A stretch of 47,122 bases of DNA. Source: an uncultured Bacteroidales bacterium (GTDB taxonomy: Bacteria; Bacteroidota; Bacteroidia; Bacteroidales; Muribaculaceae). The translations under genes and the position numbers were made by a program. This document shows positions 3,567 to 11,321 of this stretch, in pieces. How positions within the stretch are numbered: position 1 is the first letter of the stretch; every line of letters starts with the position of its first letter. The stretch covers positions 1 through 47,122 of the forward strand of contig CACWID010000024.1 in NCBI GenBank assembly GCA_902760865.1. Direction: 5' to 3'. The notes beneath the pieces are model-generated. The model had not been told where the DNA came from. It did not search any database and saw only the letters and a list, made by a program, of their open reading frames with translations.

Positions 3567-3723
3567 TTAGTTGTTTTTCAGGATGATGTCGATGATGGCA
3601 TTGACATCGGCAATGCTGACTTCGCCGTCGCCGTTGACGTCGGCGGCAGGTATGCGGGTGTGGCCGTTGTTGCCGCCCATGATGACAACATCGATTACGC
3701 TATTGGCGTCACCGATAGTGACC
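3567..3723. repeat. 157-bp near-identical repeat of the dockerin-coding 3' end (other copy 1620-1776)
   Basis: The two 157-bp stretches align without gaps and I count two differences, while the LRR parts of the two genes are clearly diverged. A further 27 bp (3546-3572 and 5845-5871), spanning the start codon and the bases upstream of it, is identical between the two genes. This points to recent tandem duplication or gene conversion. Confidence 0.8.
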
Positions 3724-5850
3724 AACGGGGGTATTCCGATATGCGTCCACTACTTCGGCCGGGACGAATAATGTGGCTGTTTCATAGCACTCATCATCGA
3801 AACAGTTCTCGTTTTCCATCACGGGAGGCGTTGTTGCCAGGCAAGTTATCTCTTTCAATGCCGTGCATCCCGAGAAAGCAAATCCCTCAATTGTCTTGAC
3901 ACCGCTGCCGATGGTGACACTGGCCAGTGAAATGCACGCTGGATCCTCGAGCTGACCGTAAACATCTTCGGCGGCAAATGCCCGGTACTTGATGACCTCG
4001 ACAGAATTGGGGATGATAATCTCCTTCAGATTAGGACACCCCGAGAACATGTGCCGCCCTATTGACTTAACGCCCTCGTTGATCATGACATGGGTCAGAT
4101 TGGGGACCCATCCCAGGGCACAATTGCCCATGTCCTCAACACCGCTGCCAATGATGATAGTTTGCAGATTGGTACAATCGTCTAGGAAGGCATAGTCGCC
4201 GATATATCTGACCGAGTTAGGGATGGTTACTCTAAGGAGTCCCTCATAGTTGTCCTCAAGAGAAAACCGTTCACTACCGTAAAAGAGTCCGTCTCCCAGG
4301 CTGGTTGTGCCATCTGGTATGATGAAATCAGTGCTGTCGGGGATTCTGCCCTTGTAATGATAGGCTACTGGGCCAGCATAGACAAGGCCGTCGGGCTGCA
4401 TGTCATACCAAGCAGTGCCGCCAAAAGCACTTATGCCGACTGATTTGAGAGTGTTGGGGAAATCAAAATCCTGAATACTGGAGCAGCCGGCAAAAGCTTG
4501 ATAACCGATGGCCGTGACGGCGTCAGACATCTCAACGGACTCTAACCATGTGCAGAAGTAGAAGGCACGGGTACCGATGGCAGTGATGGTGTTGGGCATG
4601 ATGACCTGTACCACCCTTGGCTGTTCACTGAAGGCATAGTCAGCAATATATTTTGTGCCCGGCTTGATGTCAATGACGGTGTTCATGGGCATTTCACCCT
4701 TGTAGGTATAGGCGAACGGCCCGGCGTAGATGATGCCGTCGGGCTGATTATCAAACCATGCCGTCCAGCGGAATACATTCTGTCCAATGGCTGTCAATGA
4801 ATGAGGTATATAGATGTCAGCCAGATTGACACAACTGCTGAAGGCTTCATTACCGATCGACTGGAGTGTTTCAGGAAATGACAGTTCAGTTAAGCCAGTG
4901 CAACCATCAAAACAGTTTTCACCCACCGTGGTAACTGATTCGGGCATAGATAGACTTGAAAGCCCCTTGCACAAGAAGAATGCATGCGACCCGAGTGTGA
5001 CAATCGAATTGGGCAGGCTGACGCTACTGAGGTCAGAGCAGCCGCTGAAGGCATAATTGCCGATGGCTGTGACGGCATAGGTCATGCCCGAGTCGTCGGT
5101 GACCGCCTCGGGGATGACAATGTCGCCACTGTATTGCGGGGTGCCATAGATGAAGACATTGCTATTGGAGTAATTGACCACAGTGGCGGTGGCATCCTTC
5201 TTGTTCAAGATATAATAGATGCCGTCAACCTCAAGGTCAAAGGCCATGGCTTCTCCCCCTGCGTCGCCGATGATATGGACAAATTTGTTCCAGACGGGTG
5301 CATTGCGATAGCTCTCCACAGCACTGGACGGGACATGCAAGGTGACACTCTCGTAGTGGGGACTGTCAAAGCAATCCTCATAGTACATCGCAGGTGGTGT
5401 CGTTAAGGGACAGGTAATGGTTGCCAGTGCCGAACACATCGAGAAGGCATGTTTCTCAATGACAACCGTAGGGGTAAGAAGGTTGACGCAGGCCAAGCTT
5501 GTACACAGGTAGAAGGCCTCATCCTTGATGGTGGTGATGGATTCAGGGATGGTGATGCTCGTCAAACCCTGGCAGTAATTGAACGCATAATAGTCAATTG
5601 TCGTGACAGGGTAGGTCACGTCCTGATAAGTCACGGTAGCAGGGATAACCACGTCTCCATGGTAATCACTCAGGTGCATACCACTGCGGTATTCTTGAAA
5701 GGTGACACAAGCTTCATTGTCCACAATCTTATAATAGATGCCATCCACCGCAAACTCATAGTTGGTGTAGCTGTATGGGCAAAGGGCAAAGGCTGAGGCT
5801 GGCAGCAAGAGTGCCAGCAGCAGTGTCATCAGTTTCGTTGTCGAGTTCAT
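3567..5850 (-). pseudogene. BspA-like LRR protein, frameshifted before its dockerin tail (ORF 3709-5850)
   Basis: The intact frame (3709-5850) encodes 713 residues: signal peptide 1-22 (ending PASAFA), a short LRR module to about residue 190 that ends in a YRNAPVWNKFVHIIGDA bridge, then a second module starting at about 200 with another VDGIYYIL opening and many LRR_5 repeats. It therefore looks like two LRR proteins fused in frame. The frame ends VDAYRNTPVGHYR-stop. Compared with the paralogue at 1620-3551, five bases (TTCCA on the plus strand) are missing between 3723 and 3724. An intact dockerin coding stretch then continues out of frame to a stop at 3567-3569. The shortened protein would still be exported but would lack its tail. 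A sequencing error or switchable frame cannot be excluded. Confidence 0.75.
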
Positions 5851-5896
5851 AATGATATGTCGTTTTTAGTTATTGATTGCGATAGGATTTCACCTG

Positions 5897-5904
5897 CAAA
5901 GTTA
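5897..5904 (-). promoter_or_regulatory. -7 box for the LRR gene pair
   Basis: TAACTTTG on the minus strand matches TAnnTTTG. The predicted transcription start is near 5890, about 40 nt before the ATG at 5850. It is the same element, in the same module, as the -7 boxes of the two CotH genes. Confidence 0.55.
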
Positions 5905-5927
5905 TAACTAATTTGTCAAAAAACCGC

Positions 5928-6041
5928 CTCATTCCAATCTCATTTTCAAAAATGTAAAACGCTGGAAATCTTGCATGTAAAAAATAAAAATCTCATTTTG
6001 GGCTCATGGGCTCAAGAAAAAGGTGTAAAAGTTTCAATTTG
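5928..6041. promoter_or_regulatory. Regulatory module copy 1: paired CTCAT half-sites
   Basis: CTCAT occurs at 5928, 5939, 5992 and 6003, that is at offsets 0, 11, 64 and 75. The same spacing is found upstream of both CotH genes. The first half-site lies 23 bp beyond the minus-strand -7 box at 5897-5904, against 34 bp in the other two copies; the difference is 11 bp, one helical turn. The far end carries a degenerate divergent box (TCAATTTG, 6034-6041) where the third module has a functional-looking TAATTTTG. Confidence 0.6.
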
Positions 6042-6073
6042 CATCAAGATTTTTACAGTCTTCTGTCTTTTTC

Positions 6074-7417
6074 CTATTGGAACTCGTGCATATCAATGTA
6101 TGGTTGTTGCTCACTCCACTGGTTGTTGAGCCAGGCTACTTTCTTGTCAAAGCAGGGCTTCTCAAATGCTCTCATGCGGGCAGGGATATTGTCGCTGCTG
6201 TATTGCGGCCAGCGCTCATGGTCACAATTGCCAGCAGCCTCGATTCTAGCTGTAAATTCCTCCATGAAGGCATCCATTGTGGGATAAACATTCTGGTAGA
6301 AGCGTTTCCAGTGATACCTCACTCTTTCCTGGAAGTGAGTGAACTTGGCTATCTCTCTAATCCATCGTACACGGCAATAGCTAGGCAGATTTTCATAGAT
6401 GTATTCGTCAAACTGGTAGGTTGAGCCAAAACGCTGGAACGAGCTGCCGCAATCCCATAGCGGGCCGAATATCAGCTTTGTGTCTTCGCCTCGCTGTTTG
6501 TACATGTAGCAACTGCCCGAGAAGGCTTCGGGATTATCAACTACTTCCTGGATGATATAGAAAATCACCAGCGACTCGATGTCAATATACTTTTCCCACT
6601 CGGTGCTGCTTTTGTCGCTGCAATAGATGGCCTGGTCGGCTTCAATCAAGAAGTTGGTGATGAATTCACGTTGTTGTGGACTTAGGTACTCGGGTGAGTG
6701 TAATGATACCCAGAATGGCATGCCGTTACCCTCAATAAACGTAATATTATCAGGCTCAATGTAGTTATCTATTTCTAGCAGCCATCCGCCAGTAATGTGC
6801 TCTGGGTCGGTCTCGAAATCGTTCTGTTCTACGATGTTGACGCGGTCCTTGGCTACACGTATTTTCTCGGTCAAGAAGTACAGCCCGATATAGTCGCCGT
6901 TGAGCACGACTTCGACGGGTTGTATGCGTGGATTCCACGCCATACCCATGCGGCGCCCGATTTCAAATGGCAGCGCATCGTTCAACTGCCCCATCCAGTA
7001 CTCGGCGTTGGCCATCAGCACCCAGTGTCGACTCGATGGCATGCCCAGCACCTTGTGTTTCTCACCAAACTTGAGTCGATAGGGCTTTTTTTCTAGATTG
7101 GTCCATGTGGCATTTCCGCGGCCCTTGATTTCGGTTTTCAAGGGTCGTTTTCTTGATCCGATGGATTCAAAGCGTTTGTCACCCATGTTGTCCAGCCACC
7201 ATTCGGCATTGACGTACTCATCCTTGCTGTCAATCTTACAACTATCCTCGGTATTGATAAACAACACGGGCAACGTGCCCGAGTAGGGTATGTCCATAAT
7301 CACGGTATCCTCTGGTGTTGGAGGCTCAGGTTCTTGCTTTGGCATTTTAGGCTCATCCACACAAGCAGCAAACGCCAGTGCCATAATAATTGATATCAAG
7401 AGGCTTGTTTTGTTCAT
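6074..7417 (-). CDS. CotH-kinase-like lipoprotein, copy A
   Basis: A 447-residue protein of the CotH family (spore-coat kinase-like fold, widespread in secreted bacterial proteins). The start at 7417 (MNKTSLLISIIMALAFAAC) was chosen over an in-frame ATG at 7456 because the -7 box at 7454-7461 places transcription start near 7447. Residues 1-18 are a lipoprotein signal with Cys19, followed by a Pro/Glu linker. Recognisable CotH segments are IKGRGNATW...KKPYRLKF, the HWVLMAN stretch, YIGLYFLTEKIRV, and the metal/catalytic Asp region DNPEAFSGSCYMY...FGPLWDCGSSF. The substrate is unknown. Its last codons read EFQ-stop where copy B continues for several more residues; the sequence after the stop still matches copy B, so a nonsense change trimmed this copy. 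Confidence 0.85.
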   Translation of the reverse strand: MNKTSLLISIIMALAFAACVDEPKMPKQEPEPPTPEDTVIMDIPYSGTLPVLFINTEDSCKIDSKDEYVNAEWWLDNMGDKRFESIGSRKRPLKTEIKGRGNATWTNLEKKPYRLKFGEKHKVLGMPSSRHWVLMANAEYWMGQLNDALPFEIGRRMGMAWNPRIQPVEVVLNGDYIGLYFLTEKIRVAKDRVNIVEQNDFETDPEHITGGWLLEIDNYIEPDNITFIEGNGMPFWVSLHSPEYLSPQQREFITNFLIEADQAIYCSDKSSTEWEKYIDIESLVIFYIIQEVVDNPEAFSGSCYMYKQRGEDTKLIFGPLWDCGSSFQRFGSTYQFDEYIYENLPSYCRVRWIREIAKFTHFQERVRYHWKRFYQNVYPTMDAFMEEFTARIEAAGNCDHERWPQYSSDNIPARMRAFEKPCFDKKVAWLNNQWSEQQPYIDMHEFQ

Positions 7418-7453
7418 ATAAAATGGTATTATTAGAATGATTATTTCTCTCCA

Positions 7454-7461
7454 CAAAGTTA
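7454..7461 (-). promoter_or_regulatory. -7 box for CotH copy A
   Basis: TAACTTTG on the minus strand fits TAnnTTTG. The predicted start is near 7447, about 30 nt before the chosen ATG at 7417, and it rules out the longer in-frame start at 7456. Confidence 0.55.
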
Positions 7462-7495
7462 GAGACCAGAAATGTTAAATCGGCCCAAAAGTGGA

Positions 7496-7610
7496 TTCAT
7501 TCCAACCACATTTTTGAAAACACAAAATGCAGAAAATCAGCCATCTATAAAATATTATTCTCATTTTGCGCTCATTCGTTTAGATAATAAGCCTTAATGT
7601 GTTAATTTTG
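7496..7610. promoter_or_regulatory. Regulatory module copy 2: half-sites plus divergent -7 box
   Basis: Half-sites TTCAT 7496, CACAT 7507, CTCAT 7560 and CTCAT 7571 have the offsets 0/11/64/75 of the other copies; the first two have drifted by one base each. At 7603-7610 there is an intact plus-strand TAATTTTG, 32 bp from the last half-site exactly as in copy 3. Here, however, it points into the 3' end of CotH copy B (antisense) because no plus-strand gene follows. Confidence 0.6.
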
Positions 7611-7619
7611 CAACAAGAT

Positions 7620-9143
7620 TCACAGTCTTTTATCTTTTTTCTGTTTGGATTCAGACGCATCATTGTATGATAGTCGTGTGCTCCACTGCGACTGCAGCCA
7701 GACTACTTTCTTATGGAAATACTGTCGGCCATAGTGGTTGAGGCGATAAGTGATGTTGTTATTGTTATATTGGGGCCAGCGCACATAATCTGCATTTCCC
7801 GCCTGTTCGATTTTTGCGGCAAAATTGTCCAAGTAATTATCAATTTGCGGATAGATTTGTTCGTAGAACAATAACCATTTCTCCCTAACACAAGACTGGA
7901 AACGGGGAAACTTTGCAATCTCTGCAATCCAGCGACAATACCAATTGCTGGGCACATCCTCATAAATGAACTCGTCCTGATATTCACTGCTTTGACGATA
8001 GTAGGAGTGGTCACAATCCCATATTGGTCCAAATAAAAGTTTTGTACTATCGCCACGCTGCTTGTACATGTAACAACTGCCTGAAAACGCCTCCGGATTG
8101 TCGGCAATTTCCTGAACTACATAATAGGTAGCCAGTGATTCGATGTCAATATATTGTTCCCAGAGGGTACTGTACTTGTCGTTGCTATAGATGGCAGCAT
8201 CGGCATTTTTCAGAAAGTCAGTAATATACTCACGCTGCACATCACTCAAGTTTTTAGGAGAATGTGGCATTACCCAGAATATGTTTCCGTTCCCTTCGGT
8301 AAACGTGATGTTGCTGGGCTCGTCATAATTGTTAATCTCAAGCAGCCAGCCACCAGTCACTTTTCTGGGATTGACCTCATTATCATGCTGCTCGATGATG
8401 TTCACACGATCATCATCAACAGTTATTTTCTCAACAAGGAAATACATGCCGATGTACTGGCCGTTGAGGACAACCTCGACAGGTTCCATGTGGGGGTTCC
8501 AAGCCATGCCCATCCGTCGTCCGATTTCATAGGAAAGTGTGTTTTCAATCTGTCCCTTCCAACTGCCGGCATTGGCCAGCAGGGCCCAGTGTCTGTTAGC
8601 AGGCATCCCCAACATTTCTTGCTTGGCTAACAGTTTAAGTCTTAACGGTTTCTTGTCATAATGGTTCCACGAGTAATGACCGCGTCCCTTAATCTCCATC
8701 CTCTGTGGCTCACTTGCCGAACCTATGGACCCGTATCCCTCAATGCCCATATTGTCGAGCCACCATGATGCATTCAGATAATCCTCCTTGCTGTCGATGT
8801 CACGATGCCCCTCGGTATTGATAAACAACACGGGCAAAGTACCTGAATAGGAAGGCATGGGTGGCAATTCCTCGCCTAAAAGGGCATCAACTGCCATATT
8901 GATGTCGGCGATATTGATTTCCTTGTCGCCATTGAGGTCAAGGGCATAGGTATATAGCGAATGATAGCGCGTTCCTGTCATGATGGCATCAATCAGTATG
9001 TTGACATCAGCAACGGTCACCTCCCAATCACAGTTCACGTCGCCGCGCGGACGCAGTCCTGACTTTGACTGCACAGTCATGCAAGCAAGAACGAACAACG
9101 CCGTCACCAGCCCTGAATTGTAGTGCATCAGTGTTTTTCTCAT
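7620..9143 (-). CDS. CotH-kinase-like protein, copy B, with N-terminal dockerin-like pair
   Basis: A 507-residue paralogue of copy A. The start at 9143 (MRKTLMHYNSG) is preferred over 9182 because the -7 box covers 9180-9187. Residues 1-29 form a signal peptide with a weak lipobox (VLAC), so lipidation is possible. Unlike copy A, a two-hand dockerin-like domain follows at about residues 33-95 (GDVNCDWEVTVADVNILID and LDLNGDKEINIADINMAVD). The CotH domain comes next, with IKGRGHYSWN...KKPLRLKL, HWALLAN, YIGMYFLVEKITV and the Asp-containing FGPIWDCDHSYYR. Copies A and B share domain content over their full CotH parts and both follow the same upstream module. The unit duplicated is therefore probably promoter module plus gene, with the dockerin gained or lost afterwards. 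Confidence 0.87.
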   Translation of the reverse strand: MRKTLMHYNSGLVTALFVLACMTVQSKSGLRPRGDVNCDWEVTVADVNILIDAIMTGTRYHSLYTYALDLNGDKEINIADINMAVDALLGEELPPMPSYSGTLPVLFINTEGHRDIDSKEDYLNASWWLDNMGIEGYGSIGSASEPQRMEIKGRGHYSWNHYDKKPLRLKLLAKQEMLGMPANRHWALLANAGSWKGQIENTLSYEIGRRMGMAWNPHMEPVEVVLNGQYIGMYFLVEKITVDDDRVNIIEQHDNEVNPRKVTGGWLLEINNYDEPSNITFTEGNGNIFWVMPHSPKNLSDVQREYITDFLKNADAAIYSNDKYSTLWEQYIDIESLATYYVVQEIADNPEAFSGSCYMYKQRGDSTKLLFGPIWDCDHSYYRQSSEYQDEFIYEDVPSNWYCRWIAEIAKFPRFQSCVREKWLLFYEQIYPQIDNYLDNFAAKIEQAGNADYVRWPQYNNNNITYRLNHYGRQYFHKKVVWLQSQWSTRLSYNDASESKQKKDKRL

Positions 9144-9179
9144 GCTTTTGTTGTTGATAATGAGTTGTTTTTTCAACTG

Positions 9180-9187
9180 CAAAGTTA
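9180..9187 (-). promoter_or_regulatory. -7 box for CotH copy B
   Basis: TAACTTTG on the minus strand. The predicted start is near 9173, 30 nt before the ATG at 9143, the same geometry as for copy A. Confidence 0.55.
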
Positions 9188-9221
9188 GAGGATCAAAATG
9201 TTAAATTGCCACCGAAAGTGC

Positions 9222-9301
9222 CTCATTCCGACCTCATGTTTAAAAATGTAAACATCTGAATATTAAGCATATAACAAATAAAAATCTCATTCATACCTCA
9301 T
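9222..9301. promoter_or_regulatory. Regulatory module copy 3 between CotH-B and the TPR regulator
   Basis: CTCAT occurs at 9222, 9233, 9286 and 9297 (offsets 0/11/64/75). The spacers differ strongly from those of copies 1 and 2, but the half-sites and their spacing are kept. The first pair is about 49-64 bp upstream of the CotH-B start point. The second pair is about 42-57 bp upstream of the divergent regulator's start point. Both positions suit an activator that binds direct repeats on one face of the DNA. Confidence 0.6.
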
Positions 9302-9328
9302 CGATGAGAAGAAATGGCATTAAAGTGT

Positions 9329-9336
9329 TAATTTTG
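9329..9336 (+). promoter_or_regulatory. -7 box for the TPR-HTH regulator
   Basis: TAATTTTG matches TAnnTTTG. The predicted start is near 9343, ahead of both possible start codons (9362 and 9401). Confidence 0.5.
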
Positions 9337-9400
9337 CATCAGAATTATATCACATTTTTGTATGAATTTCGAGATATTCAAGCCAAAACATCGTTATCAA

Positions 9401-11122
9401 ATGATACATTTCAAGAACATTCTCATTGCATCAGTGGCAGTCTTTTTTCTGGTGATAGCTGGCTGTCACAACGACAACGCAACGATGCGGGAACTTTCCC
9501 GCATCGACTCGATGGTCTATCATCAGCAAGAAAAAGAGGCATTGCCCTTGCTGCAACAGATGGATACCAAACAATTGAGCAAGGAGGAACAGGCCTACCA
9601 TACCGTGCTGCTGTCGATGGCGATGTACAAGAACTACGTCCCGTGTACCAGCGATTCTGCCATCAATGAGGCCGTCGGCTATTATAGGAAGTCGGGTGAT
9701 GACTTGAAATATTTGAAGGCGCTCGTCGCCCAGGGTTGCGTCAATGAGGACATGGGCAAGCTGGAAAAAGCGGTTGAAAGTTACCATCAGGCCGAGGCCC
9801 TGCCGCTGGCTACCGACAGCTCGATGATCGCCTATGCCAAGTTGAGGCTGGGCGCCCTATACCAGTCACAGGTAATGGGGACTAATACCATCGCCCTGCA
9901 GAAGTACCAAGAGGCGATGCCTATCTTTAAGGCACTTGGGGACAAGCACTATGAGCAGGTGTGCCTTATGAGCATCGGCGGTATCTATCGCAATATCGAC
10001 GAGAAGCATGATTCGGCCGTGATCTATTTGAATGATGCCATTGACTTGGCCCTGGAATTGGGCGATGAATATCACGTTTTTGCCAACCGCTATACGCTGT
10101 CAGAATACTATCTGGTGAGGGAGCATAATTACGGGCTAAGCAAGAAATATGGCTTGCAGGCACTTTCGGTCAATCCTGCCGTCATCGACCATCCGCGGGC
10201 CCATTACCGTCTGGCCTCGTCCTACTTGTTCCTGGGACAAGGAGACTCAGCGATTTACTATCTGCAACAGGCTCCACAGCCCACCAATGCGCGGGACAGC
10301 ATCGTCTATTTCGAACTCATGTCCGAACTGGAGCACAGGTACTGGAAAGATGAGGAAAAGTCCAAAAACTACATCCAGCAGGCACATGCCATCGCCGATT
10401 CGTTGACAATCAATGGCCTGAACCATCGTCTGCTTGAGGTGGTGAAGAAATATGACGTGCAGTTGGCGGTGCTGAATCGTGTGCAAAGTGAAGCCCGATT
10501 AAATGAGGCCCTGCTGCTGGCGGCCTTGTTGGCATTGGCTCTATTGGCACTGGCCTTCCTGGTGTGGCGGTACAAGAACCAACTGAAGATGCGGCAGCAT
10601 GAGGTGGAGATGCTCAAGGCCGACCTTGACGGCTCGCTGACCAGCCTGCAGCAGATGCAGGCACGGCTTGACTCGCGTGAGCAGGACGATGAGGGGAAGG
10701 TACGCCAGAGCGACGAACTGCGTGCCATCATCAACCAGCAGATTGACGCCGTGCATCAGCTGATGGCGTGGTCCTACCAGTATGACAGCGAGAAGTTTGC
10801 GGCGAAGTTCAGGGAAATGATGACCGTGTCTGACATGGGTGACGACAGTAATTACTGGTCTCACCTGCAGGCGCTAGTCAATGAACTGCACGATAACGTG
10901 CTTGTCAAGGCCCAAGAAGAGGCGGGCGGCACGTTGACCGATAGCGAATTGAATCTGCTGGCGCTGTATTGTTGCGGATTCTCCCGCACGGTGATCATGG
11001 TGACGATGGGCTACAAGAGCATCGGCACGGTCTATAACAAGAAAATCCAGATTGCCAGGAAGCTGCACGTTGCCGACCTCGACGAGTTTGTGAACTCGCG
11101 TTGCTCGCAGGTTAGCGATTAA
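9401..11122 (+). CDS. Membrane-anchored TPR regulator with LuxR-like HTH
   Basis: 573 residues from the ATG at 9401; an in-frame ATG at 9362 would add 13 polar residues before the signal sequence and is less likely. Layout: N-terminal hydrophobic signal with lipobox-like VIAGC (Cys22); tetratricopeptide-type helices at about 30-370; one transmembrane helix at about 370-390, rich in Leu/Ala and ending WRYKNQLK; a cytoplasmic coiled coil at about 392-450; and a C-terminal helix-turn-helix at about 512-556 of LuxR type (LTDSELNLLALYCCGF...GTVYNKKIQIARKL). This is the Bacteroidetes design in which an outside TPR sensor is joined directly to a DNA-binding domain across the inner membrane. It diverges from CotH-B across a module with four CTCAT half-sites and is the natural candidate to act on it; that link is inference. 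Confidence 0.82.
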   Translation: MIHFKNILIASVAVFFLVIAGCHNDNATMRELSRIDSMVYHQQEKEALPLLQQMDTKQLSKEEQAYHTVLLSMAMYKNYVPCTSDSAINEAVGYYRKSGDDLKYLKALVAQGCVNEDMGKLEKAVESYHQAEALPLATDSSMIAYAKLRLGALYQSQVMGTNTIALQKYQEAMPIFKALGDKHYEQVCLMSIGGIYRNIDEKHDSAVIYLNDAIDLALELGDEYHVFANRYTLSEYYLVREHNYGLSKKYGLQALSVNPAVIDHPRAHYRLASSYLFLGQGDSAIYYLQQAPQPTNARDSIVYFELMSELEHRYWKDEEKSKNYIQQAHAIADSLTINGLNHRLLEVVKKYDVQLAVLNRVQSEARLNEALLLAALLALALLALAFLVWRYKNQLKMRQHEVEMLKADLDGSLTSLQQMQARLDSREQDDEGKVRQSDELRAIINQQIDAVHQLMAWSYQYDSEKFAAKFREMMTVSDMGDDSNYWSHLQALVNELHDNVLVKAQEEAGGTLTDSELNLLALYCCGFSRTVIMVTMGYKSIGTVYNKKIQIARKLHVADLDEFVNSRCSQVSD

Positions 11123-11145: not shown

Positions 11146-11227
11146 TGTAGAGACGCAAATTTTGCGTCTCAAGGTATGGGCTTTGTGCTCTCTAACGATT
11201 TGAGACGCAAATTTTTGCGTCTCTACA
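11146..11227. repeat. MITE-like composite palindrome (GAGACGCAAA hairpins)
   Basis: Two hairpins, GAGACGCAAATTTTGCGTCTC (11150-11170) and a near-identical one at 11202-11223, are flanked by outer inverted ends TGTAGAGACGC and GCGTCTCTACA. The whole is an 82-bp inverted-repeat element. It begins 24 bp after the regulator's stop and could end its transcription. A related half-element lies inside polA (31316-31341). Confidence 0.7.
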
Positions 11228-11321
11228 ATGCTAGCGGGGCGGCCACGCCAAGGCGAAGCCCTACATCACGGATGCCCCTCAGAAGATTCAGATTAATCAG
11301 TTGTTTTTAAATCTTGGTGGC

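What the first reader, a model, noticed from the sequence alone, without database searches (positions are those of the whole stretch)
5897..9336. Three-copy regulatory module with four CTCAT half-sites in fixed spacing
Upstream of the LRR gene and of each CotH gene there are four CTCAT-like half-sites at offsets 0, +11, +64 and +75: 5928/5939/5992/6003, 7496/7507/7560/7571 and 9222/9233/9286/9297. The spacer sequences differ strongly between copies, while the half-sites (two one-base variants in copy 2) and their distances are kept, which looks like a selected binding footprint rather than simple recent duplication. The gap from the first half-site to the minus -7 box is 34, 34 and 23 bp, a change of 11 bp, one helical turn. 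Direct repeats with 11-bp period are typical of dimeric winged-helix or LytTR-like binding; here they would serve co-regulated surface proteins.
Basis: partly seen in the sequence, partly recalled or inferred. Interest (0 to 1): 0.85.

Follow-up and report, generated by a model that had tools for sequence, protein, structure and literature searches.

The report
Four-site operators of membrane-anchored regulators
The three CTCAT arrays look like switches read by the membrane-spanning regulator encoded beside them, and relatives of this gut bacterium carry many such switches, each with DNA letters that match the reading part of its own regulator.

Summary
CTCAT half-sites at 0/+11/+64/+75 lie exactly where stated. 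Across 25 distinct regulator-adjacent CTCAT arrays, half-sites are 90% identical, columns outside half-sites, dyad and A-tract 61%. A profile of the array hits 49 of 101 genomes of the genus; 48 of these also have the TPR-TM-HTH regulator, and 50 genomes have neither.

Paralogous regulators have the same array with other letters (CTCAT, TTCAT, GTCAT, YTAAT), and the letters follow the recognition helix: both inner sites fit a three-residue rule in 70 of 88 regulators (rule drawn from the same data), and they follow it in natural sensor/HTH mosaics.

Outward -7 boxes sit at 23 or 32-34 bp on the target side (102 of 105 arrays) and at 27-29 or 38-39 bp on the regulator side (61 of 61 regulator-adjacent arrays), one helical turn apart. 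The centre is IHF-like.

Best reading: polar, autogenous operator of a membrane-anchored LuxR-type one-component regulator, probably an activator. The winged-helix/LytTR guess is not supported. There are no binding or expression data.

The parts
5928..6007 (.). Array copy 1 (upstream of the LRR gene): half-sites 5928-5932, 5939-5943, 5992-5996, 6003-6007, all CTCAT
   Evidence: profile hits
7496..7575 (.). Array copy 2 (upstream of the first CotH gene): TTCAT 7496, CACAT 7507, CTCAT 7560, CTCAT 7571
9222..9301 (.). Array copy 3 (between the second CotH gene and the regulator): CTCAT at 9222, 9233, 9286, 9297
5962..5972 (.). Central dyad (IHF-like core) of copy 1, alignment columns 47-57
7530..7540 (.). 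Central dyad of copy 2
9256..9266 (.). Central dyad of copy 3
5897..5904 (-). -7 box of the LRR gene, 23 bp from half-site 1
7454..7461 (-). -7 box of the first CotH gene, 34 bp from half-site 1
9180..9187 (-). -7 box of the second CotH gene, 34 bp from half-site 1
9329..9336 (+). -7 box of the regulator gene, 27 bp from half-site 4
7603..7610 (+). Probable relic of the regulator-side -7 box in copy 2, 27 bp from half-site 4; the stretch to its right is the 3' end of the second CotH gene
   Evidence: inference
9401..11122 (+). Regulator: lipobox-like signal, TPR repeats, one TM stretch (about residues 365-391), predicted long helix, C-terminal LuxR-type HTH
11021..11062 (+). Recognition helix, residues 541-554; residue 540 (S) just before it, 542 (G) and 545 (Y) in it go with the half-site letters
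3709..5850 (-). Target: BspA-type LRR protein
6074..7417 (-). Target: CotH protein
   Evidence: start (L072)
7620..9143 (-). Target: dockerin-CotH protein

Best explanation
The array is the operator of the regulator encoded beside it: a one-component, membrane-anchored transcription factor with a (probably periplasmic) TPR sensor, one TM helix, a long helical linker and a C-terminal LuxR-type HTH. Shown by sequence: (1) four half-sites form two direct-repeat pairs (11 bp within a pair, 64 bp between pairs, so on one helix face) around an IHF-like centre; (2) the array is polar, half-site 1 facing the target promoter and half-site 4 the regulator's own promoter, each promoter standing at one of two distances one helical turn apart; (3) the half-site letters go with the HTH recognition helix of the neighbouring regulator, also in natural mosaics. 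Inferred: HTHs of a regulator dimer fill each pair; an IHF/HU-type protein bends the centre so that the pairs meet; the complex contacts RNA polymerase at the target promoter (activation) and tunes the regulator's own promoter; a signal acts through the TPR part. Paralogues use other letters, so several such switches work side by side. My odds: operator-regulator pairing 0.88, activation rather than repression 0.7, IHF-like bend 0.5. The figure below is for the operator reading as a whole.
For: Arrays and regulators occur in the same genomes: 48 both, 2 regulator only, 1 array only, 50 neither, of 101. All 80 of 150 listed arrays that lie upstream of a regulator have the same orientation. Promoter distances are fixed to 23 or 32-34 bp (102 of 105) and 27-29 or 38-39 bp (61 of 61), with repeated one-turn jumps on the tree: 13 changes on the left (at least 8 forced by starred branches), 6 on the right (at least 5). 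Letters match the HTH rule at both inner sites in 70 of 88, at one in 10. In the mosaics L090 and L038 the operator follows the HTH, not the sensor; H540 with TAAT sites occurs in two separate places of the sensor tree. HTH model pLDDT 91.8 with LuxR-type matches. The centre matches the IHF consensus on both strands, with the IHF gap of 4 best of gaps 0-11.
Against: No binding or expression data. The recognition rule was drawn from the same 88 proteins, and class largely equals clade: mutual information did not single out HTH columns. 8 of 88 regulators fit at neither inner site (L007 with GTAAC; decayed or odd operators in L006, L096, L100, L102, L105, L110, L115), 10 at one only. L041/L139, L095, L138 and L145 showed no array within 420 bp upstream; G176 and G190 have a regulator but no array hit. 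The symmetry of the centre is imperfect (arms fully paired in 9 of 131), and another place (column 78, an A-run facing a T-run) scores higher as a palindrome, 3.34 against 3.07 of 5. L038 has a long branch, so its place in the tree is unsure.
Confidence: 0.82

Rival explanations
1. Same operator and same regulator, but repression: the two pairs hold a loop over both promoters, and the signal releases it.
For: The array lies between two divergent promoters, and a bend plus two paired sites suits a loop as well.
Against: Arrays stand upstream of the promoters at 23-39 bp rather than over the -7 boxes or start sites, with distances in steps of one helical turn, which is commoner for activators (recalled). 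Arrays away from a regulator keep half-site 4 with only one promoter present.
Confidence: 0.25
2. Another, diffusible transcription factor reads the arrays; the TPR-HTH regulators are only among its targets.
For: About half of the listed arrays (70 of 150) lie away from a regulator.
Against: The half-site letters vary with the HTH of the adjacent regulator, also in mosaics, and arrays and regulators share a genome distribution.
Confidence: 0.08
3. Leftover of tandem duplication without function.
For: The three window copies sit in tandem-duplicated DNA.
Against: The module is conserved above its flanks in orthologues and occurs at unrelated genes across the genus.
Confidence: 0.02
4. A recombination or mobile-element site, or an RNA element.
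For: Direct repeats around an IHF-like site recall phage attachment arms (recalled resemblance, not tested).
Against: Outward promoters at fixed distances flank it (128 of 131 on one side), so these promoters do not transcribe it; no Rfam match up to E 1 in window 5800-9500; its genome distribution follows the regulator. I did not search for recombinases near the arrays.
Confidence: 0.03

Closest known systems
NarL/FixJ/LuxR-type (GerE) DNA-binding domains, e.g. VraR, RcsB, FixJ, DosR
   Same: Four-helix HTH with the recognition helix after a T-V-like motif; 49 of 50 listed PDB matches of the model are of this type; the best sequence-profile matches in the PDB are VraR DNA-binding domains, E 0.14-0.6.
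   Different: Sequence similarity is below family cut-offs (Pfam GerE reached by 2 of 54 members at E up to 1, best 0.13). The domain hangs on a membrane-spanning TPR protein, not on a receiver or autoinducer domain.
Membrane-bound one-component regulators of the ToxR/CadC kind (recalled)
   Same: Outside sensor, one TM helix and a cytoplasmic DNA-binding domain in one protein.
   Different: Reversed order (sensor first, HTH at the C-terminus), TPR sensor with lipobox-like signal, LuxR-type instead of winged-helix DNA-binding domain.
IHF-assisted nucleoprotein complexes
   Same: A central site that fits WATCAANNNNTTR on both strands between protein sites spaced in helical phase; IHF bends are said to bring flanking sites together (PMC8942017, passages).
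   Different: Consensus is from enterobacteria; whether an HU/IHF protein of this organism binds there is unknown.
Bacteroidota primary promoters (TAnnTTTG at -7, TTTG near -33; PMC7366714, passages)
   Same: The flanking promoters carry TAnnTTTG.
   Different: I did not test for a -33 box; the activator sites would stand at or near its place.

Membership tests
NarL/FixJ/LuxR-type HTH domain | Four-helix HTH fold | tested here: met
   AlphaFold2 model of the last 92 residues, pLDDT 91.8; 49 of 50 listed PDB matches of this type, though E is 0.24 or worse
NarL/FixJ/LuxR-type HTH domain | Sequence match to the family profile (Pfam GerE) above its cut-off | tested here: not met
   2 of 54 members at E up to 1, best 0.13
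LuxR/NarL response regulator | Receiver or autoinducer-binding domain | tested here: not met
   Only TPR families matched
ToxR/CadC-like membrane regulators | N-terminal winged-helix DNA-binding domain before the TM helix | tested here: not met
   DNA-binding domain is C-terminal and four-helical; hydrophobic stretch at 365-391
LytTR regulators | LytTR domain (mostly beta) | tested here: not met
   No LytTR match in Pfam; all-helical model
IHF binding site | WATCAANNNNTTR | tested here: met
   At most one mismatch at the centre in 63 (+) and 54 (-) of 131 arrays, next best places 4 and 20; shuffled motifs reach this in 0.9% (better strand) and 0.03% (both strands)
IHF binding site | Bound and bent by an IHF/HU-type protein | not testable with these tools
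   Four PF00216 (HU/IHF family) matches in the genome; binding unknown
Membrane-anchored one-component regulator | Signal or lipobox, outer sensor, TM helix, inner HTH in one chain | tested here: inconclusive
   Lipobox-like motif in 76 of 89 sequences, TM-like stretch before the linker; topology itself not shown
Bacteroidota primary promoter | -7 box TAnnTTTG | tested here: met
   128 of 131 on the target side against 6.8 in shuffled flanks; 61 of 61 on the side of regulators

The most novel reading that the evidence does not exclude
A lineage-restricted family of orthogonal, membrane-embedded switches. Paralogous TPR-TM-LuxR regulators share one fixed nucleoprotein geometry (two direct-repeat pairs clamped over an IHF-type bend) and differ in a three-residue recognition code that sets the half-site letters (R542 with GTCAT, H540 with TAAT, S545 with TTCAT, Y545 with CTCAT). 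Sensor domains are exchanged in evolution while HTH and operator stay matched, so that new signals are wired to existing regulons such as LRR/CotH/dockerin surface proteins or TonB/serpin genes.
Probability: 0.5. Interest if true: 0.82.

Novelty: new variant of a known kind. Interest (0 to 1): 0.72.

Why it matters
It would give a regulatory logic to large sets of surface and envelope genes in uncultured gut bacteria, allow regulons to be predicted from sequence alone, and offer a natural protein-DNA recognition code with ready-made orthogonal pairs and natural domain swaps. It also poses a testable question: how a membrane-tethered factor builds a four-site complex on bent DNA.

Tried and rejected
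Winged-helix/LytTR reading: not supported by the model. RNA element: no Rfam match. Simple duplication explains the local copy number only. Mutual information between protein columns and half-site letters did not single out the HTH, because class and clade coincide; the tree and the mosaics were used instead. The first AlphaFold2 job, a longer C-terminal piece with 14 sequences, gave pLDDT 68 and no useful fold match; a shorter piece with 54 sequences worked. Outside the genus there were 5 weak hits in 5 genomes (E 2e-5 to 1e-3). Only L181 (genus g5) lies by a regulator-like gene, which is split over several reading frames, and its two inner sites are 46 instead of 53 bp apart; in L177-L180 the window regulator found no tblastn match. 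Paper searches listed nothing that by title and abstract start describes this regulator or operator; I opened none of those papers, and the library lacks most subscription journals.

Limits and dropped rows. R1 holds the three window copies and L005, so 4 of its 9 confident own hits were in the model; R2 holds copy 3, L005, L006, L009 and L076-L080. R2 was built from 71 rows: near-duplicates, low scorers and L062, L095, L008, L010, L110, L115, L117, L101 were left out (73 left), and I left L133 and L007 out of the list given. L062, L095, L008, L010, L041, L139, L145, L138 dropped, then 183 modules thinned to 131 by similarity; those eight plus L036, L009, L136 dropped, then 112 reduced to 88 different proteins. 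L135 had no upstream sequence. L014-L038 and L042-L068 are largely the same genomes from two collections. Modules were located by an ungapped profile, and sites 2 and 3 define the groups, so only sites 1 and 4 are unselected there. One search listed its best 150 arrays only; of 70 arrays away from the regulators, 60 were fetched, and some of these do have a regulator-like gene start beside them (e.g. L197, L199, L203). One search took the best-scoring array of a locus; for L224 this was the regulator's own array. Pfam scans took 23 of 28 (CTCAT), 20 of 20 (TTCAT) and 44 of 52 (GTCAT) target genes.
Full report
WHAT IS THERE. The four CTCAT-like half-sites stand at 0, +11, +64 and +75 in all three places named. 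Between the -7 box and half-site 1 the gap is 23 bp for the LRR gene and 34 bp for both CotH genes. The pattern with up to three mismatches is found nowhere else in the own genome (3.35 Mb, 61 contigs) and never with the reversed control. The three genes encode a BspA-type LRR protein, a CotH protein and a dockerin-CotH protein. The gene divergent from copy 3 encodes a protein with a lipobox-like signal, TPR repeats, a TM-like stretch and a C-terminal HTH.

DUPLICATION AND SELECTION. The modules sit in old tandem repeats that run into the CotH gene (families D1-D3). Copy 2 keeps a likely relic of the regulator-side promoter (TAATTTTG, 7603-7610). Between copies the half-sites share 18-20 of 20 bases and the rest 35-42 of 60. 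Sites 2 and 3 were used to choose that group; sites 1 and 4, not used, hold 1.28 and 1.60 bits against 0.88-1.01 in the spacers. So conservation is not confined to the half-sites: dyad and A-tract belong to the module.

A GENUS-WIDE FAMILY. A first profile of the module (R1) found nine places in the own genome at E below 1e-4, six of them outside this window; four of the nine were in the model. With the broader profile R2, 49 of 101 genomes of the genus have arrays at E up to 1e-4, and the regulator is found in 50 of 101 at E up to 1e-60. 48 genomes have both, 2 only the regulator (G176, G190), 1 only the array (G218), 50 neither; Fisher p 3e-25, not corrected for kinship. In a sample of 149 genomes of the family, regulator matches at 1e-60 come from 3 genomes, all of the genus, and arrays outside the genus are 5 weak hits. 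The 25 named loci are MAGs labelled Prevotellaceae, Muribaculaceae, Bacteroidales or Porphyromonadaceae; several titles name ruminant gut sites.

POLARITY AND PROMOTERS. Of the 150 arrays listed, 80 lie upstream of a regulator, all 80 in the same orientation; 77 of them within 309 bp, three at 911-1188 bp. An outward -7 box lies on the half-site-1 side within 75 bp in 128 of 131 distinct arrays (wrong strand 2; shuffled flanks 6.8 on average, 15 at most). Among the 105 arrays of the three main classes, 102 have it, at 23 bp (47) or 32-34 bp (55). On the other side all 61 regulator-adjacent arrays of these classes have a box at 27-29 (24) or 38-39 bp (37), against 4 of 44 arrays elsewhere. On the sensor-domain tree the left distance changes 13 times (at least 8 forced by starred branches) and the right distance 6 times (at least 5). 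Repeated jumps by one helical turn are what direct contact with polymerase would demand (inference). Arrays away from a regulator keep half-site 4 about as well as the others (1.78 against 1.53 bits for GTCAT, 1.51 against 1.60 for CTCAT, 1.46 against 1.35 for TTCAT), so the whole four-site array appears to be the working unit for the target gene.

THE LETTERS FOLLOW THE HTH. Paralogous regulators have the same geometry with other letters: CTCAT, TTCAT, GTCAT, CTAAT/TTAAT. In a model from 54 sequences (pLDDT 91.8) the C-terminal domain is a helical HTH, and 49 of the 50 listed PDB matches are NarL/LuxR-type proteins (E 0.24 and worse, a small domain). The recognition helix is residues 541-554. 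R542 goes with GTCAT, H540 with TAAT, S545 (with G or T at 542) with TTCAT, Y545 with CTCAT. In 88 distinct regulators both inner sites fit in 70, one in 10, none in 8. The rule was drawn from these same data and class largely equals clade, so this alone proves little; mutual information ranks many non-HTH columns as high. The stronger evidence is the mosaics. On the tree of sensor domains the class changes six times where three would suffice. L090 has a TTCAT-clade sensor (best identity 75-90% over residues 53-364, against 35-57% to the CTCAT clade) but a CTCAT-clade C-terminus (79-92% from residue 365 on, against 54-78%), and its inner sites are CTCAT. L038 (the same locus as L091) has a CTCAT-like sensor and, from residue 469 on, a more TTCAT-like C-terminus (81-87% against 71-74%), and its inner sites are TTCAT; its branch is long, so its place is less sure. 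L090 and L091 stand in one genome (G164). H540 occurs in two separate places of the tree, each time with TAAT sites. L133 combines R542 with Y545 and has GTCAT at site 2 and GTCAC at site 3. Against: L007 (GTAAC) is not predicted; several regulators of the GTCAT clade have odd or decayed own operators (L006, L096, L100, L102, L105, L110, L115); L041/L139, L095, L138 and L145 show no array within 420 bp upstream.

THE CENTRE. The array's midpoint is a near-palindrome, about YTGATTWTCAR. Extended, it matches the IHF consensus WATCAANNNNTTR on both strands: 63 and 54 of 131 arrays with at most one mismatch, next best places 4 and 20. Of gaps 0-11 the IHF gap of 4 is best on both strands (next best 27 and 39). 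Shuffled motifs do as well on the better strand in 0.9% and on both strands in 0.03% of 3000. Against: the arms pair fully in only 9 of 131 and at 4 of 5 in 43, and column 78 scores higher as a palindrome (3.34 against 3.07 of 5). The consensus and bends of up to 180 degrees were read in passages of PMC8942017; PMC6907758, also seen in passages, prints this consensus in the H-NS row of its table, apparently by a shifted row. The own genome has four matches to the HU/IHF family. The pairs are 64 bp, about six turns, apart, so a bend at the centre could bring them together on one face. This step is inference.

REGULONS. CTCAT-class targets (23 of 28 scanned): dockerin in 16, BspA-type LRR in 13, CotH in 5. 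TTCAT class (20 of 20): LRR in 17, dockerin in 16. GTCAT class (44 of 52): TonB C-terminal domain in 34, serpin in 11, tRNA synthetase in 3. For L221 and L223 my largest-ORF rule probably passed over a nearer gene, since L077, L212 and L242 have an exported protein of about 300 residues there. In the own genome the GTCAT arrays L076 (C26), L077 (C2), L078 (C7) and L080 (C16), and L079 (C6) with GTCAT at one site only, precede a TonB_C gene (L078), a serpin gene (L080) and three genes without a Pfam match (L076, L077, L079). The only own regulator seen with R542 is L006; the HTH of L009 is cut off by the contig end.

MECHANISM AND VERDICT. Shown: geometry, conservation, polarity, phasing, and the match of letters and HTH. 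Inferred: binding, dimers on each pair, bend, activation, signal through the TPR part. The system works like a membrane-bound one-component regulator (ToxR/CadC in logic, recalled) but has a LuxR-type HTH at the C-terminus and a TPR sensor. It is not a response regulator by its domains, and its HTH does not reach the Pfam GerE cut-off. I found no description in the paper library (listings only).

Noticed in passing
window 11150-11230: Two near-copies of a palindromic stretch (gagacgcaaa...tttgcgtctc) stand behind the regulator gene, like an intergenic repeat or terminator pair.
   Followed up: no
G164: L090 (C6:2705-4420) and L091 = L038 (C17:65258-66994): Two regulators of one genome look like reciprocal mosaics: each has the sensor type of the other's clade, while HTH and inner operator sites match.
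   Followed up: partly
L181 (G004, another genus), about 280-1620: A regulator-like gene split over several frames lies next to an array-like stretch with inner sites 46 bp apart; target-like gene on the half-site-1 side.
   Followed up: partly
L041/L139 (G060:C42) and L145 (G176:C34): Regulators of the same family with another recognition segment (YKNLASVTNKK) and no detectable array upstream; they may read a different operator.
   Followed up: no
all arrays, alignment columns 59-61 of A1 (+44 from half-site 1's CAT): A fifth CAT-like element, four times 11 bp from half-site 1, is common in the CTCAT class and weaker in the others.
   Followed up: no
target proteins of alignments A6 and A7: Many LRR and CotH targets carry dockerin type I domains (16 of 23 and 16 of 20), hinting at a cohesin-dockerin-like surface assembly.
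   Followed up: no
GTCAT-class targets, e.g. L080:1-1473: Serpins (protease inhibitors) stand under the same array class as TonB-type proteins, and the Pfam counts overlap (34 TonB_C plus 11 serpin plus 3 others of 44 scanned), so some proteins carry both domains.
   Followed up: no
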